A DNA stretch of 64,000 nucleotides, from contig JAWQUS010000010.1 of assembly GCA_036365455.1 (NCBI GenBank), positions 23,422,501-23,486,500 on the forward strand, given 5' to 3'. This stretch comes from Macrosoma leucophasiata. Lineage: Eukaryota > Arthropoda > Insecta > Lepidoptera > Hedylidae. Below the pieces are notes generated by a model. That model was given only the letters and a program-made list of their open reading frames with translations. It was not told where the DNA came from and made no database searches. The position numbers and the translations under genes were made by a program. Positions 23,995 through 59,899 of this stretch are shown here, one piece after another (within the stretch, counting starts at the first letter, position 1; each line of letters opens with the position of its first letter).

Positions 23995-24147
23995 ATGGCG
24001 GCTGCATTGCTGTCAAATAGGAAATTCGCCAAAATATTTAGAAGTCATTTTAAATTTACTAAACCATTTTCTAACAAATCTGTAATCCTCAACAAACCGC
24101 AGTTTAGTATAACGTGCAAACAATGTGCTGCAGTGAGCCATGCCCGT
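23995..24147 (+). CDS. ABCB7: ABCB7 exon 1
   Basis: 51 codons, lysine/arginine-rich with few acids, like a mitochondrial targeting presequence. Ends at a GTAAAT donor. An in-frame ATG at 23908 is possible but has a weaker context. Confidence 0.85.
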
Positions 24148-39100: not shown

Positions 39101-42100
39101 CGAGCTTTAAGTGGCACAAGACTATTAATTATACTCTAAATTACACAAATATTACATAAAAAAGTCAAAATCTAAAAATAGAAGTTATACAATACTCTAA
39201 CGCTATTGGTCACTTAAGCTCTATCTACGTTCCGATAACGTATACTATTGTGTACTATGCTATTGACGACTACACAACGCGATTGTTATAGGTTGTCTAC
39301 GCGCTGAGAACGTACACTATTGAGGACTGTATGGCCGATCACTATCAAAACTGTTTTTTAATCACACACACTGTACACTGTACTTACGGCGTCGGGATGT
39401 GACGACCCCATCGCCCACTAGCACAAGAATTCCCTTCTGGTGGAGAGGAATTCTTCCGCTAGTGCAGTCAGTCCACCGAACAATGGCGGTCAAACCAGGG
39501 CGGTACAAGTACGTGGGATGGGCAGCAGCGTCCCGCGTAAAATTGCCGCCACTGCGATCGCCAACCCGCATGCCAAGCGTGGCGATTATGGCATTTTCCC
39601 TCCAAATGAGACACAACAAGAAAAAACGGCCCCTAGTCCCCGGCGGCTCCGCTATTCCTGACCATAGTGGTACCGGTCATGGTAACGGCGGGGCAGGGGG
39701 TGCGAAGAATCTCCGGCAGATGCCAGGGTACCACAAACAACGACAATTGGCCCTGGCAACATACAACATTCGGACACTGCGGACCGACGAGAAGGTAGCG
39801 GAACTAGAGGAAGAATTGAGCGGGTTACGATGGCACATTATAGGGTTATCTGAGGTCCGAAGACAGGGGGAGGACTCGATAACCCTCAAGTCTGGTAACC
39901 TGCTCTATTTCCGGGAGGGCGAACAACTGTCCCAGGGTGGTGTCGGTTTCATCGTCCACAAATCCCTCGTGAACAATGTTGTCAAGATCGAGAGTGTGTC
40001 GTCGAGAGTGGCGTACCTTATACTCAGAATAACCAAGCGGTATTCGTTGAAGGTCATACAGGTCTACGCCCCGACCTCAGCACACTCCGATGATGAGGTA
40101 GAAACTATGTATGAGGATATTTCCCGAGCCATACATAGTTCTAAAACCCACTACAACGTTGTCATGGGTGATTTCAACGCGAAATTGGGCGTTCGAGGCG
40201 ACCACGAGCTGAAAGTGGGGCAATTTGGATATGGGCGACGAAACACCAGGGGCCAGACACTGGCTGACTTCATGGAGAAAGAGAGCCTCTATATGATGAA
40301 CTCTTTCTTCGTCTTTCTTTCAAGAAGCGGGCGAAGTCTTTCTTCAAGAAGCGGGCTTGCCGGAAGTGGACCTGGATCAGTCCTGACGGTGCGACCAAAA
40401 ATGAGATAGACTTCATTATGTCCACAAGGCGGCATATATTCAGTGATGTCTCTGTGATCAATTCGGTAAAAACCGGCAGCGATCACCGAATGGTAAGAGG
40501 CACACTGAATATAAATGTCAAGATCGAAAGATCCCGACTAATGAAGTCTACGCTCCGCCCAGCACCGGCCCAAATCCAAAACCCCGAGAGCTTTCAACTC
40601 GAGCTACAAAATCGCTTTGAATGCCTGAGTGAGTGCGTAGATGTGGACGATTATAATAACAGGTTCGTGGAAACTGTCCGGACGGCGGGGTCTAAGTTTT
40701 TCAAGACCCGCCCTTCAAACAAGACCAAAAAGATCTCCAGCCCAACTCTCAAGCTCATGGAAGAGAGGCGAGGTATGGTTCTGAAGTCCTCTGAAGATGC
40801 TTTAGTGTACAGACGGCTCAACAGACAGATCTCCAAGTCATTGACTCGCGACCTTCGGCACTTTAATACTAATAGTATTCAAGCAGCCATAGAGCGGAAC
40901 CAGGGCTCTAAAGTGTTCGCCAAAGATCTGTCCTTAGGCCAAAGCCGTCTCACTAAGCTGAAGACAGAGGACGACAGAATCGTATCGTCGAAACCTGAGC
41001 TTGCAGAGGAGATCGAACGGTTTTACGGACAGTTATACACGACAGCACGACCACCTGTTAACAGTCCGGCAGCAGATCCTAGAGCCGGACTGACCCGACA
41101 CTACACCGAAGATATCCCGGACGTCAGTCTAGACGAGATTAGTACGGCTCTCAAACAGCTCAAAACAACAGGGCGCCGGGTGATGACGGAATCACTGCTG
41201 AACTCCTGAAAGCAGGCGGAAGGCCAGTATTAGAAGCTCTTCAGTTGATGTTCAATTCCGTCATATCCGAGGGCAAAACGCCACAGGCGTGGCACAGAAG
41301 TGTGGTGGTACTGTTCTTTAAGAAAGGCGACAATACCCTTCTAAAAAACTATAGGCCCATCGCACTTCTAAGCCACAGGCAGGGCACATAGCTCGACGAA
41401 CTGACGGCCGTTGGGGCAGAGCAGTTCTCGAGTGGCGACCACGTACCGGAAAGCGAAGCGTAGGCAGGCCTCCCACAAGATGGACCGACGACCTGGTGAA
41501 GGTCGCGGGCAATCGCTGGATGAGGGCGGCCCAGGACCGTTCGTTGTGGCATTCTTTGGGGGAGGCCTTTGTTCAGCAGTGGACGTATTTTGGCTGAAAT
41601 GATGATGATGATGATGACTGTACACTATTAATGAGCGTCCTGCACACTAATTATTTTAAAGAAAAATGGAAAGAAAAATTTGACTTCAGGCGAGACTCGA
41701 ACTCGCGGCCTACTGGGAATCTAGTCCAGCCGCTCTTCCAATTGAGCTACTGAAGTCCTGCCCGATTTGTCAAATCTTTTCTTCACATTTATTGCATTAC
41801 TTTATGGTAGTAGCAGCGCCATCTATTACCAACTATGCTAGTTAGGCAACCGATATAATAGACTTTTCAGTTTATTGAATATCGTAAAGAAGTCGCTTTT
41901 ACCCTTAATAATTGTTTTATATTATTTCGCATTAACACATGCTTGTGAAATATATTTTATTTTAAAGAACAAATCGGGCAGGACTTCAGTAGCTCAATTG
42001 GAAGAGCGGCTGGACTAGATTCCCAGTAGGCCGCGAGTTCGAGTCTCGCCTGAAGTCAAATTTTTCTTTCCATTTTTCTTTAAAATAAAATATATTTCAC

Positions 42101-44609
42101 AAGCATGTGTTAATGCGAAATAATATAAAACAATCCCTTATTCGTTCACTTTTTTACCTCCAACCCCTATTTTTTATTGCGGTATCGAGGTCGTTAACTA
42201 TCCATTTTTTTATACTGCTAAGGCGATACGAAATTCGTCGGGACAGCTAGTAAATTTCTGATTCTGATTCAGGAAAAAGACCAAGCGAAACCCCTCATAG
42301 TGGACGCGAATACGGCCACGATAGAGTTCCGCGACGTCAGTTTCAAGTACGTGAACGGGAAGCCGATATTCAACAACTTGAACTTCAGCATACCGGCCGG
42401 CAAGAAGATCGGCATCGTCGGTGGCTCCGGCAGTGGGTGAGTTTACTGTTTGTTAAATGGGTGACGGAGCTCCCGGCCGTAGGCACCACCGCATTACCTA
42501 ATATTCTTCTTCTCCGTCGTTCACTCTTGGTAGAGCGGTCGTGATTATGGGTCTCTCAATGTTGACCGCAGCCTTCGCGATTGCTCTTCACCGGTCTCTG
42601 TGTGGCACTGCGGGTAAACTCTGTGATGGAGAAGCCAGTTGTGGTTTTAATGAGGTCAGTCCACCTGATTGGGGACCGACCCCGTGATCTTCTGCCTTCC
42701 ACTCGTCCTTGTACTACTAGGCGATCCATAGAGTCGTGTTTACGGGTGACGTGACCAAAGAACTTGAGGACTCGTAGTTGGACAGTCGACGAGAGCCTTT
42801 GTTTTATTGTAAGTTCTTTAAGTATGGATGCGTTTGTTCTATGCGCAGTCCAACTTATCCTTAGAGGGCGTCGCCAGCACCACATCTCTAGGGCGTCAAT
42901 CTTCCTCCTATCTTGCATACTAAGCGTCCACGTTTCAGCTCCATAGAGGAAGATTGGAAAGACTAGGCAATTCGTATCCGACGGTCTTTCCATATCTTAG
43001 TGAGCTTTTACTACAGCACTACCGTGTTCCGGTCAGGTGGCAATGTACGGTCCTGTAATTTCCGGCACAAAGGCATAACACCTCAGGCCTCAGGAGTGGT
43101 AACACATCTGCATTTTGACCTTGGTCATTGTGTGGGTGTCTATAGGCTGCAGTTATCACTTAACATCAATGTGAACTGGACGCTTGTTTGCCACTTCCAT
43201 TACATAAAAAAAACTTGTTATTTTTTTTCTCCTAATTAATGATAGCTATGAAAGGCGTGTTTGTTTATGTATGACATTTGATTAAAACAATGTTTCATTT
43301 GTTAAATAGTTAGGTGTAGTCGACCTAGATTCGGATAGAGACTATGAAATCAATATTTTTTAAATACAAGTAACCTGCATAATATTTTATTATTTATCTT
43401 CAATGTAATTATTCGAATCAGTCAAATAATAAAGTGGCTTTCAAATTGATGGGCAGCGAGTCACAAGATATGCTTACTAGTCGAAATCAATATTTGCCTT
43501 TGATTCTAGCAAATCTACGATGGTGCGTCTGTTGTTCCGGTTCTACGAGCCGCAATCCGGTGAGATTCTTATCGCCGGACAGAACATCAAGGATTTAGAC
43601 TTGACTACTTTGAGGAAAGCCATCGCTATCGTACCACAGGTATGTGACAGGGATGTTACGGATGTCACATCTGATATAGAATAAAAGAAAGAATAAGAAA
43701 AAAATGTTGATTCGGATAGGCCGTTCCACACTAATAATAACAGAGAATAAAAGAATATTTAATTTTGTGATGAAAAAAATAAACAAGTAGGAAAAATAAT
43801 GCCCATACAATAAAACTCTTATAGATACTGAGTTTTCTTATGGCAGGTTTTTTCTCAGTAATGTGGGCTTTGGAACTCTGCCAGTGAATGACAAAGAATG
43901 CTCCATATTTTTTAATTTAGTCTTATCTTGCCGTTTGTAAAAATTGCGACTCAAGTCCTTTATTTCTTCATCAGGATTGCGTGTTATTCCACGACACGAT
44001 ATTCCACAACGTGCACTACGGAGACCTGTCTCGCTCGCCTGAAGATGTGTACCGCGCCAGCAAGATGGCCGAATTACACAACTCTGTTGTCACGTGGCCT
44101 AAGGTATATCCAACTTATTTTATTTAAAGAAAATTCACAAGCATGTGTTAATGCGAAATAATATAAAACAATTATATCCAACTTTACATTAATTGGTATT
44201 AGTGGTCCTTGGAATCGGATGTAAACCTGCGGTCTATGGATAATCAAAACCCCGCATTATTTTGTGTGTGACGACCGCTTGAACCGAGGTCTACGGGTTC
44301 GATATCCATTACAAGAATCGTGTCATCGTCGAAAACAATAATCTTACCACCGATATCATTTAGAGATATTTGACATAGTTCGTTAATAAATACTAAAAAC
44401 ATGGACGGCCCCAAGAGGCTGCCTTGTGGCACACCGTAGGTAACCGGCAAATCATCGCTTTGAATTATTAGCGATGCCATTTTGAATTTAAAAAAATATT
44501 TATTTATTTTATCAGTTAACCATAGGATAGTGAAGAGAATTATCAAAAAGGTGCAGAGGAAAAACTGAAAGTTAGATATAAAAACTAAAAGCAAAATTAA
44601 AATAAAGAG

Positions 44610-44669
<60 letters not shown>

Positions 44670-47600
44670 CTTCACGCCAGGTCCCTAACGGGGTAGGCAG
44701 AGAGTGTAGAGCGCCAGACATCCCGGTTCTGACAAACCTCTCGTGCCTCGTCTACCTTCATCATTCTCTTCATACATGCACGCGAGATAATAAATATATG
44801 TAATATATAACTAACATGCACGCGAGATAATAAATATATGTAATATATAACTAATAAATATAAATGGATATATACAATTATGAATTAAAATTTCCAATGA
44901 ATATACACACATAAATATATATATATGTATTTAATTATTATTTAGATAAACAAAAATACAAATACCTACTCAATAATAAGATTAAAATATGTACATGAAG
45001 TGCGCATGGCTCAGCGGCTGGTGTAGATCATAAGCGATCTACTCAGTTAGGCACTACGGGCGCGGTCGGGTAGAGTGATGGGTGACCGCTAGTGGCAAAT
45101 TAAATGCGCGTTTCCGTGCTTCGGAGGGCACGTTAAGCTGTCGGTCCCGGTTGCTATCGATAGATAGCAGTCGTTAAACCTTGTCGGAGGCCTTATGGGC
45201 GGTTTGAAAACATCCGACAGCGGGTTGGCTACTAACCTATCCATCTTCACCGATCCGCATTGGAGCAGCGTGGTGGAGTAAGGCCTTCAGGCCTCCAGGC
45301 CTTCCCCCAAAAAGGGAAGAGCAGAGCTCGTGCCCAGCAGTGGGACGTATAATGGGTTGCCATTATTATTATAACATGTGCAGAATCACTATACACATGT
45401 GCTCCCATTATAAATTCAAATCTAATCAATTTTCACAAATTTTCAAGTGTTTTACCATATAATTAATTGAATTGTTGGCTTGGGCACATAGTGAGAGGAT
45501 AAATTAGGCTTTAATGTCCTAGAATTTTTTTTTTTGCACTTACTTGCCGGCGACCTTTGATAGTATTTTACGTCACTTCACTTAGCGGTACTTAAATCAC
45601 TGCACTAAAACAATTCAACCCAGGAAGATGGCTTCCATTGCGAATGTAGCTGAGTTCCAGAGGACGGCAATGGCAGCTCTCAATCAGAGGATGGCAGAGT
45701 TCGAAGCCCACCTAAAAGCGTCGTCACCAGGTACTGACTTATCTTCACTAACTAAGGACTTCACTAGCTTCAAGGACCATGTTTGGTCAGTCCTGAATTC
45801 ACTGCAACAGCAAATAGCCGAAGTGAGCAAGCAACTTGACTCCATCGAGACTCATCACCGTAGAAAGTTCCTGTTGCTTGGTGGAGTCCCTGAAATCTCC
45901 AGTGAAGACACTACTCAGACAGTGCTTACAATTCTTCATTCCAACCTTGGTCTCACAAACTTGGATAAAAGCTCTATAGCTGTCTGTCATCGCTTAGGCA
46001 TCAACAGTGAAGGGAGGACACGGCCAATTCTCTTCAAATTTACAAATGTAGAAATGAAGGCCACGGTATGGGGTAAGAAAACCAAGTTGAAAGGTACCAA
46101 ATTAGTACTTTCCGAATTTCTGACCCACCAAAGACAAGTCTCATTTGCATTGGCTCGCAGACTCTTTGGAATTTCAAATGTTTGGACCATGAATGGGAAC
46201 ATCAATATAAAGTTGCCTAACGGCAAACGCCATAGACTGGTGGGCTATGATGATCTCATCGCTCTGGCCGCGTCTCATGGCAAATCCCCAGCCCATCTTT
46301 TGGAGGCCCCAGATAAAATGAGTTCCGTGAATAAAGCCTCCCAAGCTGAAGTGCCAACAAGATCGAGGCGGGATAAAAAGAAATAACCAATCTCGATGAT
46401 AATTTCTTGCTATTGTCTTCCAGTGTAGTTTATTTAGTTCCTTTCTAATGTGCAGTTTGTGTCCGTATTCATTAGCTCCGTATTGTCTTGAATGTCCTGT
46501 ATCCGTTTCACATAAATTTCTTCCACCGCCACTTGTACTTTTTTAAAATACGTGTTCGACTTGTTTGTTTTGTTTACAAATTGATTAGTAGGTAGATTTG
46601 TAATTTCTAACCACTTTGTCCAACTTTTCTATCTTTTAATTTGTACTATAATGTATTTTCGTTCGTTCATGTTTACTTTGCGTGCGTTTGGTATTGTCAA
46701 ACTTTCTGTCAAGTGACATCTGCCGTCACCTGTCATGTCAGATTAAATAGTCGTTTCTCATAGTCAATGGATCGGATACCTGTACATCACTGATCTGGAA
46801 GATGATTGTTTGTTTATTGACAAGTTATTGTGTGTTTTCTTACTGATTGTTAGCCGTCGACCGGCAGGTTATGCAAATCAATTTATTACTAAATCTTCTT
46901 TTTTTTTTTAATCTTTATTTAGTTTATATTTTTTAACTATATATATATATATTTTTTTTTATTACCATTTATTTTTATATATTTTTGGTACAATGTCTGA
47001 TGATGATGATGATAGCTTTTATTCTGCGCTTGATAGTTCTTCCATGTCCTGTTCTTCCCTTGATAGTTCTTTTACCCTAAGTCATCAACTGAACGCAGAA
47101 TTTTCTCGCAACTCTAATTGCCTAAATATCTGTCATATAAATGCTCAAAGCATACCTCAGCATCACTCGGAGCTTTTAAATATATTTTGTGACTCTATGG
47201 TTCATGTCATCCTTGTTTCAGAAAGTTGGCTCAAACCTGAACTTCCTTCTACCACTTTTAGTCTTCCTGACTTCGTCCTTATTCGGAACGATCGCATAGG
47301 TAAAAGAGCCGGGGGTGTGGCTATTTATTTACGTAGCAACATTCCCTTTCAGATTCTCACTTCTTCCCCGTCTCTCTATTCGGCTGCTCCTGAATATCTC
47401 TGTATTGAACTGAAAGTCAAAGGTGTCAAAGCTGTTCTCGGAGTTGTCTATTGTCCTCCTCTTATAGACTATTTTTCTTCTTTAGAGAGTCTTTTTATGT
47501 CCCTTTCCTCGGAATACAACCACATCGTACTCATGGGCGACTTCAATACAGATATGTTGAAATCTACCACCAGGTCTAGAATGCTCTCATCAATACTGGA

Positions 47601-50600
47601 GTCGTCAAACCTGGCTATGCAGAATCTTTATCCCACACATCATAACATTGGGTCTGACGACTCCTGGCTTGATCTTATACTGTCTGCTTCTCCTGACAAA
47701 ATTATTAACTCTGGTCAACTTGCGGTACCAGGTCTTTCAAGACATGACCTGCTGTTTATTTCTTATAAGATTAAGGCGCCTAAGATAAAGCCACCATTAG
47801 TTTGGATGCGCAACTTCTCTAAGATCGATTTTGAAAAGCTAAAACAGGATGCTTTAATGTTAGATTGGTGTCAAGTTGAAGCGGCAGAGACGGTAGATGA
47901 GAAAGTTTTATTTCTAAATAACTCAATTTTGAAGCTGTTTGATTCTCATGCTCCTCTTCACGCAGTTCGTGTTAAGCATCCTCCTGCCCCCTGGATTACT
48001 AGGGGAGTGCGGATGGCGATGTCTCGAAGAGACAAGGCTTTTCGAACCTATAGAAGGGATCGCTGCGTGGAGAAGTGGGACCTTTACAAGCGCGCTAGAA
48101 ATCGCTGTAATCAAATGGTAAGAGCAGCAAAACGCCGCTATATTCATGATAATGTAAAAAATTGCTCTTCGGCAGATGTTTGGAAGTTCCTAAAATCTAT
48201 AGGTTTCTCAAAATCCCCTTTAAATATGGCTTCTTTGAATTTTTCCATTAATGATCTTAATCATCATTTCGCTAAAGTGTTGCCTTTCGATCATAACATC
48301 AAGCTTGATACTCTTAATTACTTAACTTCCATGCCAAATTTTACTGATAGTATTTTTTCTTTTTCCTTTGTGACTAATGACGAGGTTCTCAAAATTTTTA
48401 TGTCGCTGAAATCAAAAGCAGTTGGTTGTGATGGAGTAGGTAGAACTATGTTACTACCTTTAATTGATATTATTCTTCCTGTATTGACCCACATAATTAA
48501 CTATTCGTTGGAATCTGGGACCTTTCCTGTTATTTGGCGCAAAGCGTTTGTTATCCCTCTTCCAAAAAAGCCTAATCCCAGCTCTTTCAACCATTTTAGA
48601 CCGATTTCAATTTTACCTTTCCTTTCAAAAATTTTGGAAGTCGTAGTTCATTCACAATTTAGCAAATACGTTCACAAAAATAACCTTCTGTCTCCTTTTC
48701 AATCCGGATTCAGATCTAGCCATAGCACAGCCACTGCTCTGCTCAAAGTTGTTGAGGATGTCAGATCCGGAATGGAAAATTCTGGTCTCACAGTGTTAGT
48801 CCTTATCGACTTCTCGAACGCCTTTAACACTGTGGACTACGACTTGCTACTTAAAATTTTTTCGAAAATTGGAACCTCGCCATTAGTCCAGAACTGGTTT
48901 TCCTCTTACCTTCGTGGTCGTCTGCAGGCGGTTCGAATCGATCGTGATTTCTCCGATTGGTGTGAATTGTCCTCTGGCGTACCTCAAGGCGGCATTCTTT
49001 CACCTTTATTTTTTTCACTTTTTATTAATACTGTCACGAACATTCTTAAATGCTCTTACCATTTGTACGCGGATGATCTTCAGATGTATGTTCAGGCTGA
49101 TTTTGATAATATTGATAGCGCTATTGCGTTACTAAATGATGACCTCAGTACCTTATCAACTTGGTCTCAAAATTTTGGTATTTCAGTTAATATTAGTAAA
49201 TGCCAGGCTTGCATTTTAGGCAGCCCTTATTTCATAAATAAATTGGATTATAATAACTTATCTCCTCTACTTTATAATAACAACCCAATTCCAGTAACTC
49301 GCGATGTAAAAGATCTGGGCTTATATGTTGACGCAACTTTAAATTGGAATTCTCAGATTACAAATGTATGTAAGGTCACCACTGCCACGCTGCGTTCTCT
49401 TTATAGGTTTAAGAATTTTTTACCTTCTAAAACTAAATTGCTCCTGGTACAATCACTTATTTTTCCCATCATTGATTACGCTGATGTTTGTTATTCCGAT
49501 ATTTCTCAAGAACTTCTCAATAAGCTGGATCGTATACTCAATAACTGCATCAGATTTATCTTCGGCCTCCGTAAGTTTGACCACATTTCCTCCTACCGTT
49601 CCAAGCTTAAATGGCTTTCTATCCGTCACAGAAGATGGATTAGAACTCTTTGTTTACTTTTCTCTATCCTCTACGATCCACAATCTCCTGCTTATCTTAA
49701 ATGTAAATTTAAACCCCTTGGTGGCTCCCACTCACTCAACCTGCGCTCGTCGGCAAATCTTATTCTTGAAATCCCTTCTCACCGTACTGGTTTCATCTCG
49801 AACTCCTTCGCTGTTACAGCGATTAAACTCTGGAATATGCTACCTATTGACATCAAAAAAGCTCCGAGTAAATTTGCTTTTAAACGTAAGCTTCGTAACT
49901 TCTTTCTGAATTCTTCTGACCTTCCATATTGCTTATAGCATGAATATGACGCGTTGGTATTAATTATGACACTTAAACAGCTGATTAATGAAATACTTGT
50001 ACTTCATATTTATTTATCAATATATTTTTATAATATTGTATGTTTATATTTGTGTAATATGTATGTATATTACATTTATTTATCTATGATGTATGTATGT
50101 CTATATAGTATATTATTTACATTGTATACAATTTTTCATAAGTATCTATTTCAAATTCTCGTATTATTTATAGCATTCTCACCTGTCAGCACTAGTTAAA
50201 TTTTCTACACTACCCAAAGGTTGACTGGTCGATAATGCCTTGTAGTAGCATTAAGTCCGCCTTATGTACCTTTTCTATGTGCATAGAAGTTAAATAAATA
50301 AATAAATAAATAAATGTGCATGTCTGGGCAGGGGTACTCGACGCAGGTGGGCGAGCGCGGCCTCAAGCTGTCGGGCGGCGAGAAGCAGCGCGTGGCCATC
50401 GCGCGCGCCATCCTCAAGGACGCGCCGCTCGTCGTCTTCGACGAGGCCACCTCCAGCCTCGACTCGCTCACCGAGCACGTGAGTCTAGCGCCCCTGAGGC
50501 ACACACAGAAGCGGCGCGTGGCCATCGCGCGCGCCATCCTCAAGGACGCGCCGCTCGTCGTCTTCGACGAGGCCACCTCCAGCCTCGACTCGCTCACCGA

Positions 50601-53600
50601 GCACGTGAGTCTAGCGCCCCTGAGGCACACACAGAAGCGGCGCGTGGCCATCGCGCGCGCCATCCTCAAGGACGCGCCGCTCGTCGTCTTCGACGAGGCC
50701 ACCTCCAGCCTCGACTCGCTCACCGAGCACGTGAGTCTAGCGCCCCTGAGGCACACACAGAAGCGGCGCGTGGCCATCGCGCGCGCCATCCTCAAGGACG
50801 CGCCGCTCGTCGTCTTCGACGAGGCCACCTCCAGCCTCGACTCGCTCACCGAGCACGTGAGTCTAGCGCCCCTGAGGCACACACAGAAGCGGCGCGTGGC
50901 CATCGCGCGCGCCATCCTCAAGGACGCGCCGCTCGTCGTCTTCGACGAGGCCACCTCCAGCCTCGACTCGCTCACCGAGCACGTGAGTCTAGCGCCCCTG
51001 AGGCACACACAGAAGCGGCGCGTGGCCATCGCGCGCGCCATCCTCAAGGACGCGCCGCTCGTCGTCTTCGACGAGGCCACCTCCAGCCTCGACTCGCTCA
51101 CCGAGCACGTGAGTCTAGCGCCCCTGAGGCACACACAGAAGCGGCGCGTGGCCATCGCGCGCGCCATCCTCAAGGACGCGCCGCTCGTCGTCTTCGACGA
51201 GGCCACCTCCAGCCTCGACTCGCTCACCGAGCACGTGAGTCTAGCGCCCCTGAGGCACACACAGAAGCGGCGCGTGGCCATCGCGCGCGCCATCCTCAAG
51301 GACGCGCCGCTCGTCGTCTTCGACGAGGCCACCTCCAGCCTCGACTCGCTCACCGAGCACGTGAGTCTAGCGCCCCTGAGGCACACACAGAAGCGGCGCG
51401 TGGCCATCGCGCGCGCCATCCTCAAGGACGCGCCGCTCGTCGTCTTCGACGAGGCCACCTCCAGCCTCGACTCGCTCACCGAGCACGTGAGTCTAGCGCC
51501 CCTGAGGCACACACAGAAGCGGCGCGTGGCCATCGCGCGCGCCATCCTCAAGGACGCGCCGCTCGTCGTCTTCGACGAGGCCACCTCCAGCCTCGACTCG
51601 CTCACCGAGCACGTGAGTCTAGCGCCCCTGAGGCACACACAGAAGCGGCGCGTGGCCATCGCGCGCGCCATCCTCAAGGACGCGCCGCTCGTCGTCTTCG
51701 ACGAGGCCACCTCCAGCCTCGACTCGCTCACCGAGCACGTGAGTCTAGCGCCCCTGAGGCACACACAGAAGCGGCGCGTGGCCATCGCGCGCGCCATCCT
51801 CAAGGACGCGCCGCTCGTCGTCTTCGACGAGGCCACCTCCAGCCTCGACTCGCTCACCGAGCACGTGAGTCTAGCGCCCCTGAGGCACACACAGAAGCGG
51901 CGCGTGGCCATCGCGCGCGCCATCCTCAAGGACGCGCCGCTCGTCGTCTTCGACGAGGCCACCTCCAGCCTCGACTCGCTCACCGAGCACGTGAGTCTAG
52001 CGCCCCTGAGGCACACACAGAAGCGGCGCGTGGCCATCGCGCGCGCCATCCTCAAGGACGCGCCGCTCGTCGTCTTCGACGAGGCCACCTCCAGCCTCGA
52101 CTCGCTCACCGAGCACGTGAGTCTAGCGCCCCTGAGGCACACACAGAAGCGGCGCGTGGCCATCGCGCGCGCCATCCTCAAGGACGCGCCGCTCGTCGTC
52201 TTCGACGAGGCCACCTCCAGCCTCGACTCGCTCACCGAGCACGTGAGTCTAGCGCCCCTGAGGCACACACAGAAGCGGCGCGTGGCCATCGCGCGCGCCA
52301 TCCTCAAGGACGCGCCGCTCGTCGTCTTCGACGAGGCCACCTCCAGCCTCGACTCGCTCACCGAGCACGTGAGTCTAGCGCCCCTGAGGCACACACAGAA
52401 GCGGCGCGTGGCCATCGCGCGCGCCATCCTCAAGGACGCGCCGCTCGTCGTCTTCGACGAGGCCACCTCCAGCCTCGACTCGCTCACCGAGCACGTGAGT
52501 CTAGCGCCCCTGAGGCACACACAGAAGCGGCGCGTGGCCATCGCGCGCGCCATCCTCAAGGACGCGCCGCTCGTCGTCTTCGACGAGGCCACCTCCAGCC
52601 TCGACTCGCTCACCGAGCACGTGAGTCTAGCGCCCCTGAGGCACACACAGAAGCGGCGCGTGGCCATCGCGCGCGCCATCCTCAAGGACGCGCCGCTCGT
52701 CGTCTTCGACGAGGCCACCTCCAGCCTCGACTCGCTCACCGAGCACGTGAGTCTAGCGCCCCTGAGGCACACACAGAAGCGGCGCGTGGCCATCGCGCGC
52801 GCCATCCTCAAGGACGCGCCGCTCGTCGTCTTCGACGAGGCCACCTCCAGCCTCGACTCGCTCACCGAGCACGTGAGTCTAGCGCCCCTGAGGCACACAC
52901 AGAAGCGGCGCGTGGCCATCGCGCGCGCCATCCTCAAGGACGCGCCGCTCGTCGTCTTCGACGAGGCCACCTCCAGCCTCGACTCGCTCACCGAGCACGT
53001 GAGTCTAGCGCCCCTGAGGCACACACAGAAGCGGCGCGTGGCCATCGCGCGCGCCATCCTCAAGGACGCGCCGCTCGTCGTCTTCGACGAGGCCACCTCC
53101 AGCCTCGACTCGCTCACCGAGCACGTGAGTCTAGCGCCCCTGAGGCACACACAGAAGCGGCGCGTGGCCATCGCGCGCGCCATCCTCAAGGACGCGCCGC
53201 TCGTCGTCTTCGACGAGGCCACCTCCAGCCTCGACTCGCTCACCGAGCACGTGAGTCTAGCGCCCCTGAGGCACACACAGAAGCGGCGCGTGGCCATCGC
53301 GCGCGCCATCCTCAAGGACGCGCCGCTCGTCGTCTTCGACGAGGCCACCTCCAGCCTCGACTCGCTCACCGAGCACGTGAGTCTAGCGCCCCTGAGGCAC
53401 ACACAGAAGCGGCGCGTGGCCATCGCGCGCGCCATCCTCAAGGACGCGCCGCTCGTCGTCTTCGACGAGGCCACCTCCAGCCTCGACTCGCTCACCGAGC
53501 ACGTGAGTCTAGCGCCCCTGAGGCACACACAGAAGCGGCGCGTGGCCATCGCGCGCGCCATCCTCAAGGACGCGCCGCTCGTCGTCTTCGACGAGGCCAC

Positions 53601-54657
53601 CTCCAGCCTCGACTCGCTCACCGAGCACGTGAGTCTAGCGCCCCTGAGGCACACATAGAGCAACACGGGGAGTAGCCGTAGCGTTTATTACCGATGCAAA
53701 ACAGTCTGTCATTTTTTGCGGGGGGAAATTTCGTGCGACACACGCACACTACAAAAATCGTCTATTACTACGAAACTCACACCTTGACTTTAACAAAATA
53801 CAGAAACAATTTCACGCACACATTTAAACATCTAAGCGACAGGTATAGGCCTATTTGGGCTTATACTTTGACAGAGGGGAAAGCCTATATAAAGCTACTC
53901 CCCTCTGGTGTTGCTCTATGGAGGCCTACCGTGCGTCCCGACTGACACGCTCAAGCTGAGCATACAGACGACCACACACCACGCACGGTATTCGTCACTT
54001 GAAAAAATGGCTCCGCCGAGGCGAGACGTGCAGATTGCAGCTGCTAACATAACGTCCGTCCACACGAAGCGCACGGCTCGCACCACAGAGTACTATAATC
54101 TATATTATAAAAATAAGTCGGCTTTTCCTTCCTGACGCTATAACTCCAGAACGCACGTACCGATTTCCACGGTTTTGCATTCGTTGGAAATGTCTCGGGC
54201 TCCGTGAGGCTTATAGTAAAGAAAATTGAGGAAAATTTTCAAGAGAAGCTGACTTGGAGAAAAAACATAGGCTACTTAGTTATATATAGAACGACATCCA
54301 CGCGAGCAAAACCGCGAGCAACAGCTAGCACATACTAAAATAGACACCAATTTTCAATATCAAAGAAAGCGACGGCTCACTTACGCCGTCTGGCGACTCG
54401 TTTTGGAACTAATAAAACTAATAAATAATTTGATATCATTCCAGGCGATTCTCCAAGCGTTAAAAGCGGCGACCGTCGGCCGCACTTCCATCTGTATCGC
54501 CCACCGTCTCTCCACGGTCGCGGACGCCGACGAAATACTCGTCCTAGAAAACGGGTCCATCTCCGAGAGGGGGCGCCACAGTGACCTCATCACCAACCCC
54601 AAGTCCCTGTACTACAGGCTTTGGGAGAAACAGAATAAAGACGCAGTGCCTAAATGA
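23995..54657 (+). CDS. ABCB7: ABCB7/Atm1 mitochondrial ABC half-transporter (14 coding exons)
   Basis: Inner mitochondrial membrane transporter that exports a glutathione-linked sulfur species needed for cytosolic iron-sulfur proteins. Exons: 23995-24147, 24250-24355, 28190-28320, 29463-29670, 30103-30269, 32337-32466, 34804-34952, 36660-36834, 38643-38800, 42273-42436, 43510-43639, 43975-44103, 50332-50478, 54445-54657. All phases agree and give 719 residues (human about 750). A basic presequence is followed by the transmembrane domain (exons 4-9) and one nucleotide-binding domain: Walker A GGSGSGKST (509-517, across exons 10/11), Q-loop Q557, signature LSGGEKQ (613-619), Walker B LVVFDE (633-638), D-loop SSLD, H-loop H669. 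ATG 23995 has a strong context (GACCATGG). Oddities are the exon 13 array and the LINE beside its acceptor. Confidence 0.95.
24250..24355 (+). CDS. ABCB7: ABCB7 exon 2
   Basis: 106 nt from TTTCCAG to GTGAGT, phase 1. Encodes a matrix-side linker ([18 protein letters not shown]). Confidence 0.8.
24830..24945 (+). repeat. LINE 3' end fragment
   Basis: GAAGAAATCGCTGGCAGCGATAAGGCCGCC... followed by GTACAATAAAGAGTATT, a 3' end common on lepidopteran non-LTR elements. Confidence 0.6.
26115..26259. mobile_element. MITE with AGGGTTCGAAGT ends
   Basis: 145 bp with inverted ends AGGGTTCGAAGT and a central palindrome (TGCTGATT ... AATCAGCA). No coding capacity. Confidence 0.6.
26455..26746. mobile_element. 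hAT-type MITE (CATAGAGCAACAC ends), copy 1
   Basis: Inverted ends CATAGAGCAACACC / GTGTGGCTCTATG, flanked by GTAGCAAT and GTAGCAAA. An 8-bp target duplication indicates the hAT superfamily. Related copies are at 53654 and 59614. Confidence 0.82.
27157..27690 (-). repeat. tRNA-derived SINE C, interrupted by a MITE
   Basis: On the minus strand it opens with a tRNA-like head (CTGCCTCGGTAGCCTAGTGG, box B GGTTCGATTCC). The same unit is intact at 55508-55816. The head is split by the MITE at 27435-27667. Confidence 0.75.
27435..27667. mobile_element. MITE with GTCGCGCCA-GTAAAAAGAACGCTGG ends
   Basis: About 233 bp with roughly 26-bp inverted ends differing at one or two positions, and TATA on both sides (27431-27434, 27668-27671). 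It sits inside SINE C; the empty site is seen in the copy at 55508. Confidence 0.8.
27697..27975 (-). repeat. SINE-like repeat A, diverged
   Basis: Recognisable from ATGTTATGAAAATGGCAAATA at one end and CTACTGCCAGT at the other; strongly mutated inside. Confidence 0.55.
28190..28320 (+). CDS. ABCB7: ABCB7 exon 3
   Basis: 131 nt after CCCTAG. Encodes the segment ending [12 protein letters not shown], matching the family's YVWPK before the first membrane helix. Donor GTAAGA. Confidence 0.88.
28342..28820 (-). mobile_element. RTE LINE 3' fragment
   Basis: On the minus strand it ends TTTGGCTGAAATGATGATG and encodes a degraded end of the RTE reverse transcriptase ([31 protein letters not shown]). 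It starts 21 bp after the exon 3 donor. A 7-bp microsatellite (ATCGTCG repeated) lies at about 28460-28485. Confidence 0.75.
28905..28965 (-). repeat. RTE 3' end relic
   Basis: TTTCAGCTAAACGACGTCCG...AAAAGCCTCCTCAAG is a second, short copy of the RTE terminal sequence. Confidence 0.5.
29005..29335. repeat. dispersed GC-rich repeat (SINE-like)
   Basis: Contains GAGAGCACGTTAAGCCGTCGG, a block shared with SINE D, and a 3' part (CGGTCTGGAGGACATTATTGGG). Its A/B boxes were not clear, so the class is uncertain. Confidence 0.5.
29463..29670 (+). CDS. ABCB7: ABCB7 exon 4
   Basis: 208 nt. Encodes membrane helix 1, including [18 protein letters not shown], a family signature. Donor GTAAGT. Confidence 0.93.
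30103..30269 (+). CDS. ABCB7: ABCB7 exon 5
   Basis: 167 nt. Encodes [18 protein letters not shown] and [18 protein letters not shown], strongly conserved in Atm1 proteins. Confidence 0.93.
30437..30800 (+). repeat. SINE D (RTE-tailed), copy 1
   Basis: Begins GCGCATGGCCCGGCGGCTGG (box A-like) and ends CCCAGCAGTGGGACGTATAATGG plus an ATT-rich tail. The CAGCAGTGGGACGTAT piece resembles the RTE LINE 3' end, so it may borrow RTE machinery. Confidence 0.7.
31322..31607. repeat. large perfect-type inverted repeat (fold-back)
   Basis: About 95-bp arms (31322-31420 and 31505-31607) are nearly exact reverse complements around a loop of about 84 bp. The arms include ACTAGTTTTCGGATTTATCTC and CCTTGGTGGTCCTCATTGAT. 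It lies in ABCB7 intron 5. Confidence 0.85.
31836..32160 (-). repeat. SINE D, copy 2
   Basis: Reverse-oriented copy of the family at 30437; box A region GCCGCTGGGCCATGCGCGC at the right end. Together with copy 1 it forms a long inverted pair in intron 5. Confidence 0.7.
32337..32466 (+). CDS. ABCB7: ABCB7 exon 6
   Basis: 130 nt after TTCTTGCAG. Encodes [20 protein letters not shown], membrane helices 3-4. Confidence 0.92.
32550..32647. mobile_element. MITE half (CAGTGCTCAA family)
   Basis: Matches the right half of the MITEs at 56409 and 62613 (GTGCGAAAGAGATAACGCT ... ATTTATTGTTGAGCACTGT). Confidence 0.6.
32806..33090 (+). repeat. SINE-like repeat A
   Basis: Near full-length, sense on the plus strand, from ACTGATGGTAGAGCTCC to ATAAAAAAAA. 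Confidence 0.78.
33198..33330. mobile_element. short MITE
   Basis: 133 bp with imperfect inverted ends GTGAGATTCACACACCGCA / CGGTCTGTGAATCCCAC, and inner inverted pieces ACTGTCA. Confidence 0.6.
33633..33920 (+). repeat. SINE-like repeat A
   Basis: Near full-length plus-strand copy with an A-tail, 540 bp from the previous copy in the same orientation. Confidence 0.78.
34190..34300 (+). repeat. dispersed repeat (pair with 43830-43935)
   Basis: About 105 bp (CAGTAATGTGGGCTTTGGAA ... GTCTTATATTGCC) recurs in intron 11. Family unknown. Confidence 0.6.
34438..34627. mobile_element. Helitron-like fragment
   Basis: ACTAGCTGTGCCCGTGACTTC at one end and GTCCAGCCGTTCCCGAAATTAG at the other are typical of abundant lepidopteran Helitron-like repeats (reverse orientation). 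Confidence 0.5.
34804..34952 (+). CDS. ABCB7: ABCB7 exon 7
   Basis: 149 nt. Encodes [20 protein letters not shown] and [18 protein letters not shown], with the glutathione-contact region of the family. Confidence 0.94.
35223..35775. mobile_element. Helitron-like fragments (two)
   Basis: ACTAGTTTTTGCCCGCTACTTTG starts one piece. A second ends GCCGAGTCAGCTAGTACT and contains TGGCTGGACCGATTTGGCTA. Both are of the CTAGT-ended type. Confidence 0.45.
35776..36240. repeat. GC-rich unassigned repeat
   Basis: GC-richer than its surroundings, with C- and A-homopolymer runs (12 C near 36190). The open minus-strand frame has no recognisable domain. Possibly a LINE fragment. Confidence 0.3.
36301..36638. 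mobile_element. MITE-like element rich in CGGATA/TTCGG repeats
   Basis: Ends AGGGATGTTA / TAACATCCCT are inverted. The interior is built of repeated GGATACGGATA and TTTCGGTTACGG motifs. The right end is 21 bp from exon 8. Confidence 0.55.
36660..36834 (+). CDS. ABCB7: ABCB7 exon 8
   Basis: 175 nt after TCTTTGCAG. Encodes [13 protein letters not shown] and [22 protein letters not shown] ends about 20 bp upstream of the exon. Confidence 0.94.
37031..38325 (-). mobile_element. mariner-type transposon, nearly intact
   Basis: Terminal repeats TTAGGTTGGGGAAAAAGT and complement with TA-rich flanks, about 1.3 kb, in ABCB7 intron 8 antisense to the gene. The encoded transposase has only two visible lesions. 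Confidence 0.9.
37111..38137 (-). pseudogene. mariner transposase pseudogene (one stop, one frameshift)
   Basis: Starts at 38137 (MSESNE) and meets a TAA at codon 7. It then runs open from 38116 with the helix-turn-helix [15 protein letters not shown], the DAPRSGRP linker, and all three catalytic aspartates in [17 protein letters not shown] and SPDLAPSDF (DD34D). A frameshift near 37295 moves the last 60 or so residues to another frame (LFRSLQNSL...QNGTYIL). The family length is about 340. Dead as it stands, but young compared with the element at 2880. Confidence 0.88.
38367..38440 (-). repeat. SINE D fragment
   Basis: Only the 3' end remains (ATAATAATGGCAACCCATTA ... CACGAGTCTCTCC), next to a G/T homopolymer run. 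Confidence 0.6.
38643..38800 (+). CDS. ABCB7: ABCB7 exon 9
   Basis: 158 nt. Encodes [20 protein letters not shown] and the last membrane helix, ending RPRVQ before a GTAGGT donor. Confidence 0.94.
39380..41616 (+). mobile_element. RTE-clade LINE, internally deleted, with 10-bp target duplication
   Basis: ACTGTACACT lies on both sides (39370-39379 and 41617-41626). The 3' end is TTTTGGCTGAAATGATGATG..., the RTE hallmark. Length is 2.24 kb. The reverse-transcriptase core is missing. Confidence 0.85.
39399..41385 (+). pseudogene. RTE ORF: endonuclease kept, reverse transcriptase truncated
   Basis: The endonuclease (exonuclease/endonuclease/phosphatase fold) begins [20 protein letters not shown], with [24 protein letters not shown] and [10 protein letters not shown] frameshift near 40310 (with a local CTTTCTTCAAGAAGCGGGC duplication) moves to a frame holding the GSDHRMV catalytic motif. 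A second shift occurs near 41170. The RT start ([18 protein letters not shown]) then joins abruptly at about 41385 to the element's 3' end, so fingers, palm and YADD are gone. It cannot retrotranspose alone. Confidence 0.85.
41682..41757 (-). tRNA. tRNA-like sequence (probable pseudogene)
   Basis: The minus strand folds as a cloverleaf: acceptor ACTTCAG/CTGAAGT, D-stem GCTC/GAGC, T-stem GCGAG/CTCGC with TTCGAGT loop. The anticodon loop is irregular (nine bases ACTAGATTC or a mismatched stem), so no anticodon is assigned. It is the inverted partner of the copy 300 bp on. Confidence 0.45.
41921..42132. mobile_element. palindrome-flanked tRNA-like element
   Basis: Arms of about 50 bp (TTGTTTTATATTATTTCGCA... 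and its complement at 42083-42132) enclose a tRNA-like sequence. Possible imperfect 8-bp duplication (CCCTTAAT / CCCTTATT). A lone arm recurs at 44120-44172. Confidence 0.6.
41982..42057 (+). tRNA. tRNA-like sequence (probable pseudogene)
   Basis: Same 76-nt sequence as 41682-41757 on the other strand, with intact A and B boxes (TAGCTCAATTGG; GAGTTCGAGTCTC) and the same irregular anticodon loop. Confidence 0.45.
42131..42254 (+). mobile_element. Helitron-like 3' end
   Basis: Ends GATACGAAATTCGTCGGGAC followed by AGCTAGTA, in intron 9 just before exon 10. Confidence 0.4.
42273..42436 (+). CDS. ABCB7: ABCB7 exon 10
   Basis: 164 nt. Start of the nucleotide-binding domain ([10 protein letters not shown]). 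Ends inside Walker A (GGSGSG), phase 2, donor GTGAGT. Confidence 0.93.
42460..43213 (+). repeat. SINE-like repeat A split by a LINE fragment
   Basis: Pieces 42460-42505 and 43013-43213 are consecutive parts of the family, in plus sense, in intron 10. Confidence 0.7.
42506..43012 (-). mobile_element. non-LTR retrotransposon fragment (RT C-terminal region)
   Basis: The minus-strand frame encodes [20 protein letters not shown], then [10 protein letters not shown] and [12 protein letters not shown]. This is the post-RT region of RTE-like elements. 5'-truncated and inserted in repeat A. Confidence 0.75.
43510..43639 (+). CDS. ABCB7: ABCB7 exon 11
   Basis: 130 nt. Completes Walker A (KST) and runs to the Q-loop (AIAIVPQ). 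Donor GTATGT. Confidence 0.93.
43830..43935 (+). repeat. dispersed repeat (pair with 34190)
   Basis: CAGTAATGTGGGCTTTGGAA ... AGTCTTATCTTGCC, about 90% alike by eye; it ends 40 bp before exon 12. Confidence 0.6.
43975..44103 (+). CDS. ABCB7: ABCB7 exon 12
   Basis: 129 nt, phase 0 at both ends. Encodes [19 protein letters not shown] and ends TWPK before GTATAT. Confidence 0.92.
44255..44470 (-). pseudogene. reverse transcriptase fragment of a LINE
   Basis: The minus strand encodes [20 protein letters not shown] followed by INELC and a damaged active site (FDDD where FADD is expected). About 70 residues remain. Confidence 0.7.
44610..44665. repeat. (TA)n microsatellite
   Basis: About 26 TA units. 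A further 40-bp unit (CATGCACGCGAGATAATAAA...) is repeated twice at 44776-44855. Confidence 0.9.
45002..45374 (+). repeat. SINE D, copy 3
   Basis: Full-length, from GCGCATGGCTCAGCGGCTGG to GGGTTGCCATTATTATT. Confidence 0.72.
45628..46386 (+). CDS. LINE ORF1 (RNA-binding protein)
   Basis: 252 residues. An N-terminal coiled-coil (about 10-80: [20 protein letters not shown]) is followed by [12 protein letters not shown], an RRM-like block with VCHRLG, and a basic C-terminus. The layout matches ORF1 proteins of L1/CR1-type elements and baculovirus FP-like domains, which coat element RNA. No CCHC knuckle. Intact. Confidence 0.75.
   Translation: MASIANVAEFQRTAMAALNQRMAEFEAHLKASSPGTDLSSLTKDFTSFKDHVWSVLNSLQQQIAEVSKQLDSIETHHRRKFLLLGGVPEISSEDTTQTVLTILHSNLGLTNLDKSSIAVCHRLGINSEGRTRPILFKFTNVEMKATVWGKKTKLKGTKLVLSEFLTHQRQVSFALARRLFGISNVWTMNGNINIKLPNGKRHRLVGYDDLIALAASHGKSPAHLLEAPDKMSSVNKASQAEVPTRSRRDKKK
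46993..49938 (+). CDS. LINE ORF2 (endonuclease and reverse transcriptase)
   Basis: 981 residues, open throughout. Endonuclease motifs: [57 protein letters not shown] motifs: [53 protein letters not shown], and the catalytic YADD near 692-695. The C-terminal thumb ends with [18 protein letters not shown] and FKRKLRNFF, as in the CR1/Jockey group. No RNase H seen. It nicks target DNA and copies its RNA in place. Confidence 0.88.
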   Translation: MSDDDDDSFYSALDSSSMSCSSLDSSFTLSHQLNAEFSRNSNCLNICHINAQSIPQHHSELLNIFCDSMVHVILVSESWLKPELPSTTFSLPDFVLIRNDRIGKRAGGVAIYLRSNIPFQILTSSPSLYSAAPEYLCIELKVKGVKAVLGVVYCPPLIDYFSSLESLFMSLSSEYNHIVLMGDFNTDMLKSTTRSRMLSSILESSNLAMQNLYPTHHNIGSDDSWLDLILSASPDKIINSGQLAVPGLSRHDLLFISYKIKAPKIKPPLVWMRNFSKIDFEKLKQDALMLDWCQVEAAETVDEKVLFLNNSILKLFDSHAPLHAVRVKHPPAPWITRGVRMAMSRRDKAFRTYRRDRCVEKWDLYKRARNRCNQMVRAAKRRYIHDNVKNCSSADVWKFLKSIGFSKSPLNMASLNFSINDLNHHFAKVLPFDHNIKLDTLNYLTSMPNFTDSIFSFSFVTNDEVLKIFMSLKSKAVGCDGVGRTMLLPLIDIILPVLTHIINYSLESGTFPVIWRKAFVIPLPKKPNPSSFNHFRPISILPFLSKILEVVVHSQFSKYVHKNNLLSPFQSGFRSSHSTATALLKVVEDVRSGMENSGLTVLVLIDFSNAFNTVDYDLLLKIFSKIGTSPLVQNWFSSYLRGRLQAVRIDRDFSDWCELSSGVPQGGILSPLFFSLFINTVTNILKCSYHLYADDLQMYVQADFDNIDSAIALLNDDLSTLSTWSQNFGISVNISKCQACILGSPYFINKLDYNNLSPLLYNNNPIPVTRDVKDLGLYVDATLNWNSQITNVCKVTTATLRSLYRFKNFLPSKTKLLLVQSLIFPIIDYADVCYSDISQELLNKLDRILNNCIRFIFGLRKFDHISSYRSKLKWLSIRHRRWIRTLCLLFSILYDPQSPAYLKCKFKPLGGSHSLNLRSSANLILEIPSHRTGFISNSFAVTAIKLWNMLPIDIKKAPSKFAFKRKLRNFFLNSSDLPYCL
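50288..50315 (+). repeat. (AAAT)n LINE tail beside the exon 13 acceptor
   Basis: Six or so AAAT units end 16-17 nt before the exon 13 start. They occupy where a polypyrimidine tract is expected. Confidence 0.85.
50332..50478 (+). CDS. ABCB7: ABCB7 exon 13 (signature motif and Walker B)
   Basis: 147 nt, phase 0, running from the AG at 50330-50331 to the GTGAGT at 50479. Encodes [20 protein letters not shown], then [20 protein letters not shown]. The acceptor has almost no polypyrimidine tract because the LINE tail lies just upstream. From 50381 the exon is part of the 126-bp array; only the first donor gives a normal protein. Confidence 0.88.
50381..53655 (+). repeat. ABCB7: 26-copy 126-bp tandem array of ABCB7 exon 13 plus 5' splice donor
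   Basis: Unit 1 (50381-50506) starts within exon 13 at AGAAGC and runs 98 nt to the exon end, then 28 nt of intron (GTGAGTCTAGCGCCCCTGAG...). Units 2-26 begin every 126 bp (50507, ... 53531). They differ from unit 1 by one base (AGAAGCA to AGAAGCG, Q to R). Forward-frame translations repeat exactly, so units appear identical. Each codes 42 residues: [18 protein letters not shown] then [20 protein letters not shown]. Three frames stay open for about 1,100 codons only because the period is divisible by 3 and GC-rich; these are not genes. Unit 26 is cut by a MITE. Either a recent expansion or an assembly product. Confidence 0.95.
53654..53920. mobile_element. hAT-type MITE, copy 2, at the array end
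   Basis: CATAGAGCAACAC ... GTGTTGCTCTATG with flanks GAGGCACA / GAGGCCTA (6 of 8 match). Its TAG at 53656 ends the open frame of the array. Confidence 0.8.
54090..54330 (+). mobile_element. Helitron-like fragment
   Basis: Ends CGCGAGCAACAGCTAGCA and contains ACCGATTTCCACGGTTTTGC, typical of lepidopteran Helitron-like repeats. It is in intron 13. Confidence 0.5.
54445..54657 (+). CDS. ABCB7: ABCB7 exon 14 (terminal)
   Basis: 213 nt including [17 protein letters not shown]...[15 protein letters not shown] gives the H-loop histidine. It joins exon 13 in phase 0 (TEH then AIL). The human C-terminal cysteine tail is absent. AATAAA-type signals lie at 54868 and 54896. Confidence 0.94.
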   Translation, partial: AILQALKAATVGRTSICIAHRLSTVADADEILVLENGSISERGRHSDLITNPKSLYYRLWEKQNKDAVPK

Positions 54658-59613: not shown

Positions 59614-59899
59614 CATAGAGCAACACCGGAGGGGAGTAGCCGGCTTTCCCCTCTGTCAAAGTACAAGCCCAAATGGGCCTATACCTGTCGCCTAGATGTT
59701 AAATGTGTGCGTGAAATTGTTTATGTATTTTGATAAAGTCAAGGTGTGAGGTTCGTAGTAATAGACGATTTTTGTAGTGTGCGTGTGTGTCGCACGCATT
59801 TCCCCCTCCAAAAAAATTACAGACTGTTTTGCATCGGTAATAAACGCTATGGCTACTCCCCTCCAGTCGGCCGCGGCCGGTGGCCCGTGTTGCTCTATG
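59614..59899. mobile_element. hAT-type MITE, copy 3 (perfect 8-bp duplication)
   Basis: CATAGAGCAACAC / GTGTTGCTCTATG ends with TGATACGG exactly duplicated at 59606-59613 and 59900-59907. Confidence 0.92.

What the first reader, a model, noticed from the sequence alone, without database searches (positions are those of the whole stretch)
50381..53655. ABC-transporter Walker B exon and its 5' splice site amplified 26 times in frame
A 126-bp unit (42 codons) made of the end of ABCB7 exon 13 plus 28 nt of intron is repeated head-to-tail 26 times. Each copy keeps the reading frame, the Walker B/D-loop code and an identical GTGAGT donor. Donor 1 gives a normal protein; donor n would add 42(n-1) residues with n Walker B copies, all in frame with exon 14. 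I know of no described case of a conserved transporter exon turned into a serial splice-donor array. It could be a young polymorphic coding satellite with an effect on ABCB7 splicing, or an assembly error.
Basis: partly seen in the sequence, partly recalled or inferred. Interest (0 to 1): 0.93.

Follow-up and report, generated by a model that had tools for sequence, protein, structure and literature searches.

The report
Splice-donor minisatellite in moth/butterfly ABCB7
In a moth or butterfly genome, the end of one exon of the mitochondrial transporter gene ABCB7, together with its splice signal, is repeated 26 times in a row; some other butterflies and moths carry similar but separately formed arrays in the same gene, most likely a tolerated young minisatellite rather than a new protein device.

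Summary
The array is real. The 126-bp unit (exon end, GTGAGT donor, 28-30 nt of intron) occurs 26 times at 50381-53659; 24 units are identical, the first and last differ by one edge letter each. It sits at exon 13 of an intact 14-exon ABCB7 (709 codons with donor 1), with no second DNA match seen in the genome. The open frame says little: two forward frames and one reverse frame are open. The array ends a few bases inside the terminal repeat of a hAT-type MITE, whose insertion probably came first. Annotated ABCB7 proteins of 5 of 57 named lepidopteran species, but 0 of 58 other named species, carry arrays, each at an exon 3' end; Vanessa cardui's is on the same exon but independent. Best reading: a young minisatellite across a 5' splice site, tolerated because the most upstream donor gives normal mRNA, as stated for 37-bp repeats of human factor VII intron 7 (PMC6627357, passage). 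So 'no described case' is wrong, while recurrence in lepidopteran ABCB7 looks new. No reads or RNA were available.

The parts
23995..54657 (+). ABCB7 gene, 14 coding exons: 23995-24147, 24250-24355, 28220-28320, 29463-29670, 30103-30269, 32337-32466, 34804-34952, 36660-36834, 38643-38800, 42273-42436, 43510-43639, 43975-44103, 50332-50478, 54445-54657; 709 codons, no stop inside (the start of exon 3 varies between isoforms of relatives)
   Evidence: tblastn with P0015; splice-joined translation; 83-88% identity to 24 of the 25 best proteins listed (the 25th, Manduca isoform with array, 77%)
50332..50478 (+). exon 13 with donor 1: signature LSGGEKQR, Walker B VVFDEA, D-loop, ends SLDSLTEH, phase 0
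   Evidence: ABCB7 chains 7vgf and 23pg match residues 1-47 of its translation
50381..53659 (+). tandem array, 26 units of 126 bp, each 96-97 nt of exon 13 plus GTGAGT donor and 29-30 nt counted from the donor
   Evidence: TRF, exact comparison
50479..53634 (+). 26 identical GTGAGT donors, first at 50479, last at 53629, every 126 bp
53654..53920 (+). MITE copy A, hAT-type by 8-bp target duplication and inverted ends CATAGAGCAACAC / GGTGTTGCTCTATG; the array junction lies 2-6 bp inside its left end
53646..53653 (+). left target-site duplication GAGGCACA of MITE A (the same letters occur in all 26 units)
53921..53928 (+). right target-site duplication GAGGCCTA of MITE A (6 of 8 letters equal to the left one)
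46912..50315 (+). LINE part: endonuclease and reverse transcriptase frame (46912-49938) and a TAAA run (50291-50315) that is presumably its tail, ending 16 bp before exon 13; exon 13 has the lowest pyrimidine share of the 13 acceptors (0.44)
54445..54657 (+). exon 14, in phase with all 26 donors; one match in the 616-Mb genome

Best explanation
A young minisatellite across the 5' splice site of ABCB7 exon 13. Shown: a hAT-type MITE sits in intron 13; the repeat junction joins the first bases of its terminal repeat to a point about 97 nt inside exon 13, at imperfect short homology (AGAGCAAC / AGAAGCAGC). Inferred: a break or stalled fork at the MITE end made one tandem duplication; two letters near the junction changed; slippage or unequal exchange then multiplied that one unit, so recently that no further difference has built up. 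Inferred: the array is tolerated because splicing uses the most upstream donor, which is transcribed first and gives the shortest exon, so copies 2-26 act as intron and the mRNA is normal. Rare use of later donors would add multiples of 42 residues between the D-loop and the H-loop, probably harming the ATPase. This also explains why the ABCB7 arrays seen lie at donors: an array over an acceptor would put extra copies into the mRNA if the first acceptor were used.
For: The array is exact, and its outer edges carry the exon letter on one side and the intron letter on the other. The gene is intact with donor 1 and no second DNA match of the unit or of exon 14 was found in the genome. The junction resembles the MITE-filled site and not the flank behind the MITE. 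Five other lepidopteran species have arrays that run from inside an exon to its conserved end; in four the translation goes on with V in phase 0 (Vanessa cardui 5 of 5, Manduca sexta 2 of 3 copies, the last joining the next exon) or C in phase 1 (Maniola jurtina 4 of 5, Phthorimaea operculella 19 of 21), as a GT donor demands, and in Mythimna separata the units are joined at the exon end. Manduca and Maniola also have isoforms without the array, listed on contigs of the same length. The V. cardui unit is not a multiple of three. PMC6627357 states that in human F7 intron 7 an oriented scanning mechanism uses only the most upstream 5' splice site (passage).
Against: No RNA or read data could be examined, so first-donor use and the reality of 26 copies are inferred. 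All 26 donors are identical, so the sequence cannot rank them. The intron share of the unit is short in the four other arrays where it can be read, which purely random placement would not favour, though annotation bias may explain it. In Phthorimaea one of 21 exon ends is followed by S and not C.
Confidence: 0.72

Rival explanations
1. Assembly or library error: one or two real units inflated to 26.
For: Perfect identity of 24 units; no reads examined, sequencing method unknown.
Against: A 3.3-kb array is short beside long reads; the genome is chromosome-scale, 616 Mb in 61 contigs; the array edges carry the expected letters on the proper sides; annotated proteins of five other species, presumably from independent assemblies, show arrays of the same design, one of them (Phthorimaea) with substitutions between copies. 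Even under this rival at least one duplication would probably be real.
Confidence: 0.12
2. Functional serial donor array: the copies change ABCB7 expression, either by making a ladder of longer proteins or by strengthening definition of exon 13, whose acceptor may have been weakened by the LINE that ends 16 bp upstream.
For: Unit in frame and open; lowest pyrimidine share of 13 acceptors; array isoforms are annotated in Manduca and Maniola; UBC shows that tandem splice units can yield ladders of isoforms (PMC10809524, abstract and section 7).
Against: Openness is not unusual for this composition; the V. cardui unit breaks the frame; extra copies would lie between D-loop and H-loop; copy number effect and LINE effect untested.
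Confidence: 0.11
3. ABCB7 of Lepidoptera is a mutational hot spot for donor arrays, for example through R-loops at GC-rich exon ends, and this is one more case. (Compatible with the best explanation, so the odds do not sum to one.)
For: 5 of 57 lepidopteran species against 0 of 58 others, two-sided Fisher p 0.027; two independent arrays on the same exon; all six arrays, the window included, on the donor side.
Against: Against a control gene, phenoloxidase, with 0 of 44 lepidopteran species, p is 0.067; without V. cardui, which could not return because of its length, p is 0.055 and 0.13. Background arrays of >=3 copies, 15 per Mb in a sample of only 0.2 Mb, could by a rough count give about 3 cases in 57 species.
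Confidence: 0.25
4. Mini-exons: each 30-nt stretch GTGAGT...CACACACAG is spliced out, giving 32-residue repeats.
For: Each unit holds GT and, 30 nt later, CAG; the Mythimna separata model is joined at exon ends.
Against: 30 nt is shorter than known insect introns (recalled), with a poor pyrimidine tract.
Confidence: 0.02

Closest known systems
Human coagulation factor VII gene, intron 7 (37-bp repeats)
   Same: A tandem array of variable copy number begins at an exon-intron boundary, the functional donor lies in the first unit, and the most upstream donor is used normally (PMC6627357, passage). That each unit carries a donor-like copy is recalled and fits the passage's 'highly homologous' repeats.
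   Different: 37 bp and fewer copies (5-8, recalled); here 126 bp, mostly exon, 26 copies of which 24 are identical, in frame, in an insect ABC transporter.
Internal tandem repeats at exon-intron boundaries of human duplicated genes
   Same: Minisatellite expansion at boundaries that alters splicing, the repeat being kept or spliced out (PMC2812944, outline and passages).
   Different: Genes in young segmental duplications, not an apparently single-copy gene.
UBC polyubiquitin with dual-specific splice sites
   Same: Tandem coding units with a splice site in each; isoforms with different unit numbers (PMC10809524, abstract and section 7).
   Different: AGGT serves as donor and acceptor and the units are whole proteins; here the site is a donor.
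Intron gain by tandem duplication (potato RdRp)
   Same: A tandem duplication crosses an intron-exon boundary and copies splice signals (PMC4974935, abstract).
   Different: There one duplication at the boundary of intron 1 and exon 2 makes a new intron; here many copies at a donor and no evidence of a new intron.

Membership tests
ABCB7 / Atm1 half-transporter | ABC membrane and nucleotide-binding parts with Walker A, signature, Walker B, H-loop; close match to named ABCB7 | tested here: met
   709-aa model 83-88% identical to 24 of 25 best proteins; [22 protein letters not shown] and AHRL read in the translation
ABCB7 / Atm1 half-transporter | mitochondrial iron-sulfur transport | not testable with these tools
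   names of relatives only
Minisatellite | head-to-tail units of about 10-150 bp, high identity | tested here: met
   126 bp x 26
Minisatellite | variable copy number between individuals | not testable with these tools
   one assembly only
Exon-boundary 5' splice-site array (F7 intron 7 type) | first unit spans the true exon-intron boundary; each unit has a donor | tested here: met
   26 of 26 units; exon end conserved in relatives
Exon-boundary 5' splice-site array (F7 intron 7 type) | only the most upstream donor used | not testable with these tools
   no RNA data
Dual-specific splice site array (UBC type) | AGGT at unit boundaries | tested here: not met
   read from the sequence: the unit has CACGTGAGT and, 30 nt on, CACACACAGAAG; no AGGT in it
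hAT-type MITE | inverted ends, 8-bp target duplication, several copies | tested here: met
   three copies in the window; target duplications alike in 8 of 8, 7 of 8 and 6 of 8 letters; the family label is from general knowledge
hAT-type MITE | an autonomous hAT partner | not tested
   genome searches for the element did not complete

The most novel reading that the evidence does not exclude
In Lepidoptera the ABCB7 gene repeatedly and independently gains tandem arrays that multiply a 5' splice site (exon 4 twice, exons 7 and 9 once each, exon 13 twice), by a process tied to the exon end itself. Copy number then tunes splicing or exon definition of an essential iron-sulfur transporter, here perhaps offsetting an acceptor weakened by a LINE.
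Probability: 0.15. Interest if true: 0.85.

Novelty: new variant of a known kind. Interest (0 to 1): 0.58.

Why it matters
It is a natural test of how a cell picks one of 26 identical donors, a question for which I know mainly the short human factor VII array (PMC6627357, passage) and minigenes (recalled). Arrays in six lepidopterans (the window and five others) in one gene would allow comparison of first-donor choice, tolerance of exon-boundary minisatellites and early steps of intron change. It also warns annotators: gene models that run on through the donors can give false repeat proteins, as probably in Vanessa cardui.

Tried and rejected
Frame conservation as evidence of selection: rejected. 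Common descent of this array and the V. cardui one: rejected, since unit lengths (126 and 133), breakpoints and intron letters differ. A second ABCB7 copy that would free this one: no second DNA match for the unit or for exon 14 (the tool scores only its best candidates, so a diverged copy could be missed). RNA fold of the unit in two phases: z -1.97 and -2.28, not pursued. Target duplication of the LINE: none of 7 or more letters found between its downstream flank and 44104-46950. Pfam ABC_tran across the genome, to look for arrays in other ABC genes: 19 of 210 candidates were scored and the array's own exon was not among the rows, so it says nothing about rates. A genome-wide scan for regularly spaced donors got no answer. 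The species was not identified; among the 120 proteins its ABCB7 scores highest with Manduca sexta, Epargyreus clarus and Maniola jurtina, nearly equal. Paper searches in the open-licence PMC library showed, in their listings, no report of donor arrays in Lepidoptera or ABCB7. PMC3778950 (passages) said nothing on the F7 repeats.

How the counts were made: species were counted by hand from the listings, each capped at the best 120 of 7,994 and 7,576 matches (170 distinct proteins together; 57 named lepidopteran and 58 other named species; left out: proteins without a species name and P0002-P0006 and P0010, which are other ABC proteins) and (44 named lepidopterans among 120 listed). Repeats were sought in all 170 and all 120 proteins as exact 8-residue words. 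In the phenoloxidase control, four of 120 proteins have two-copy repeats: P0171 and P0198 (Papilio machaon), P0276 (Ceratina) and P0278 (Rhagoletis). They were counted as no array because they have fewer than three copies; counting Papilio machaon would make the control 1 of 44 and remove the contrast further.

Full report
WHAT IS THERE. The window lies at C10:23422501-23486500 of a 616-Mb, 61-contig genome, on a contig of 25.04 Mb. A tandem array of 26 units of 126 bp runs from 50381 to 53659. The donor stretch GTGAGTCTAGCGCCCC occurs 26 times at exact 126-bp steps; 24 of 26 units are identical, and the first and last differ by one letter each at the outer edge. A 140-base query covering the unit has 26 matches in the whole genome, all in this array.

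THE GENE. tblastn of a lepidopteran ABCB7 (P0015) and inspection of splice sites give 14 coding exons from 23995 to 54657 with GT-AG borders and no stop in 709 codons when donor 1 is used. The protein is 83-88% identical to 24 of the 25 best-scoring proteins; the 25th is the Manduca isoform with its own array (77%). Exon 14 has one DNA match in the genome, so the gene appears single-copy, within the limits of a search that scores only its best candidates. Exon 13 carries the signature, Walker B and D-loop; the unit covers its last 96-97 nt, the donor and the start of the intron. Only copy 1 has the signature LSGGEKQR; the other copies read RHTQKRR.

HOW MUCH THE FRAME SAYS. The unit is 42 codons and open, but two of three forward frames and one of three reverse frames are open, and 45% of 20,000 shuffled units are open in one given frame. 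The V. cardui array has a unit of 133 nt, so its frame changes with each copy. The frame is therefore no evidence for a long protein.

HOW IT AROSE. Just behind the last donor lies an element with inverted ends, of which two further copies are in the window. Aligning the ends gives CATAGAGC[A/C]ACACGGG...GGTGTTGCTCTATG, a length of 267 bp here (292 and 286 bp elsewhere), and 8-bp target duplications alike in 8/8, 7/8 and, for the copy beside the array, 6/8 letters; this is the pattern of hAT-type MITEs (label from general knowledge). The unit junction reads GAGGCACA-CACAGAAGC, the end of the last unit GAGGCACA-CATAGAGC: the junction thus lies 2-6 bp inside the MITE's end and resembles the MITE-filled site, not the flank behind the MITE (GAGGCCTA-CCGTG). 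So the MITE most likely came first and the duplication broke at its end, using AGAGCAAC/AGAAGCAGC as imperfect short homology (inference). The 25 junctions share the same new letters, so one duplicated unit was multiplied. With a recalled butterfly mutation rate of 2.9e-9 and no homogenisation, no change in 3,024 bases implies less than about 340,000 generations; with homogenisation the age is open.

RELATIVES. A search with the array's translation and one with the 709-aa protein, each listing its best 120, give 170 distinct proteins. Repeats were sought in all 170. Five of 57 named lepidopteran species have annotated ABCB7 proteins with arrays: Vanessa cardui (P0001, exon 13), Manduca sexta (P0037, exon 9, 3 copies), Phthorimaea operculella (P0052, exon 4, 21 exon ends, with substitutions), Maniola jurtina (P0086, exon 4, 5 copies), Mythimna separata (P0090, exon 7, 4 full copies and 5 exon ends). 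None of 58 other named species has one of three or more copies. The units begin inside an exon and reach its conserved end. In the four that are read through, the next residue is V in phase 0 (V. cardui 5 of 5; Manduca 2 of 3, the third joining the next exon) or C in phase 1 (Maniola 4 of 5, the fifth joining the next exon; Phthorimaea 19 of 21, one followed by S, one joining the next exon), as a GT donor demands; in Mythimna the units are joined at the exon end. Manduca and Maniola also have isoforms without the array (P0032; P0071, P0072) on contigs of the same listed length. For V. cardui the three reading frames fix all 133 bases of the unit: its exon part is nearly that of the window, its intron part GTGCGTACACTGTCTGTCAGTACTGT is different. 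The two arrays on exon 13 are therefore taken as independent.

IS ABCB7 SPECIAL? Two-sided Fisher tests: 5 of 57 against 0 of 58 non-lepidopterans, p 0.027; against 0 of 44 lepidopteran phenoloxidases, p 0.067. V. cardui could enter only through, because its length lies outside the range; without it p is 0.055 and 0.13. Two-copy repeats in Papilio machaon phenoloxidase (P0171, P0198) were not counted. Species are not independent, entries are 90% clusters, and names were counted by hand. Taken roughly, this rate would put about 3 such arrays on ABCB7 donors in 57 species without any hot spot. So a hot spot is possible and not shown. That all six arrays, the window included, are on the donor side has probability 0.016 if donors and acceptors were equally likely; the first-donor rule explains it, because an array over an acceptor would add copies to the mRNA.

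HOW IT MOST LIKELY WORKS. [quoted passage not shown] The primary paper (Borensztajn 2006) was not held and seen only as a reference entry. I propose the same here: donor 1 is used, copies 2-26 are intron. This is inferred; no RNA was seen. Rare use of later donors would add 42(n-1) residues between D-loop and H-loop. Exon 13's acceptor has the lowest pyrimidine share of 13 acceptors (0.44 of 16 letters) and follows a presumed LINE tail by 16 bp, so an effect of many donors on exon definition is worth testing.

VERDICT. It is a new variant of a known kind: a large, nearly perfect, exon-rich donor array in an insect gene. The surprise is less the single array than the repeats of the same design in the ABCB7 of other Lepidoptera, for which the listings of my paper searches (open-licence papers only) show no report.

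Noticed in passing
26455-26746 (-) and 59614-59899 (-): Two more copies of the MITE that borders the array, 93% and 90% identical to it over 256 columns, with target duplications alike in 7/8 and 8/8 letters.
   Followed up: partly
17655-17969 and 22645-22959: Identical 104-aa reading frames flank a Ty3/Gypsy-like pol frame (19217-22480; RVT_1, RNase H and integrase in Pfam); probably the two long terminal repeats of a recent insertion.
   Followed up: no
37253-38116 (-): 287-aa frame that looks like a mariner-type transposase (label from memory; sequence).
   Followed up: no
41681-41757 (-) and 41982-42058 (+): Two tRNA-Ser(AGA) genes in opposite orientation, about 224 bp apart, inside the ABCB7 intron between exons 9 and 10.
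   Followed up: no
63366-63511: 73-bp unit present twice with 100% identity.
   Followed up: no
14739-16136: Intronless 465-aa SET-domain-like frame upstream of ABCB7 (Pfam SET 20.3 bits, cut-off 22.4); by eye the same neighbour is fused to ABCB7 in the model of Brenthis ino (P0051) and partly in Iphiclides podalirius (P0009).
   Followed up: partly
protein P0010: An ABC protein from a metagenome source has a 119-aa direct repeat (starting near residues 437 and 556) that includes its Walker B region; gene model or true duplication not checked.
   Followed up: no
protein P0126 (Choristoneura fumiferana): ABCB7 model extended past the exon 4 end (SLLIG followed by CNKYPG...) without repeats; a read-through at the exon that carries arrays in two other species.
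   Followed up: no
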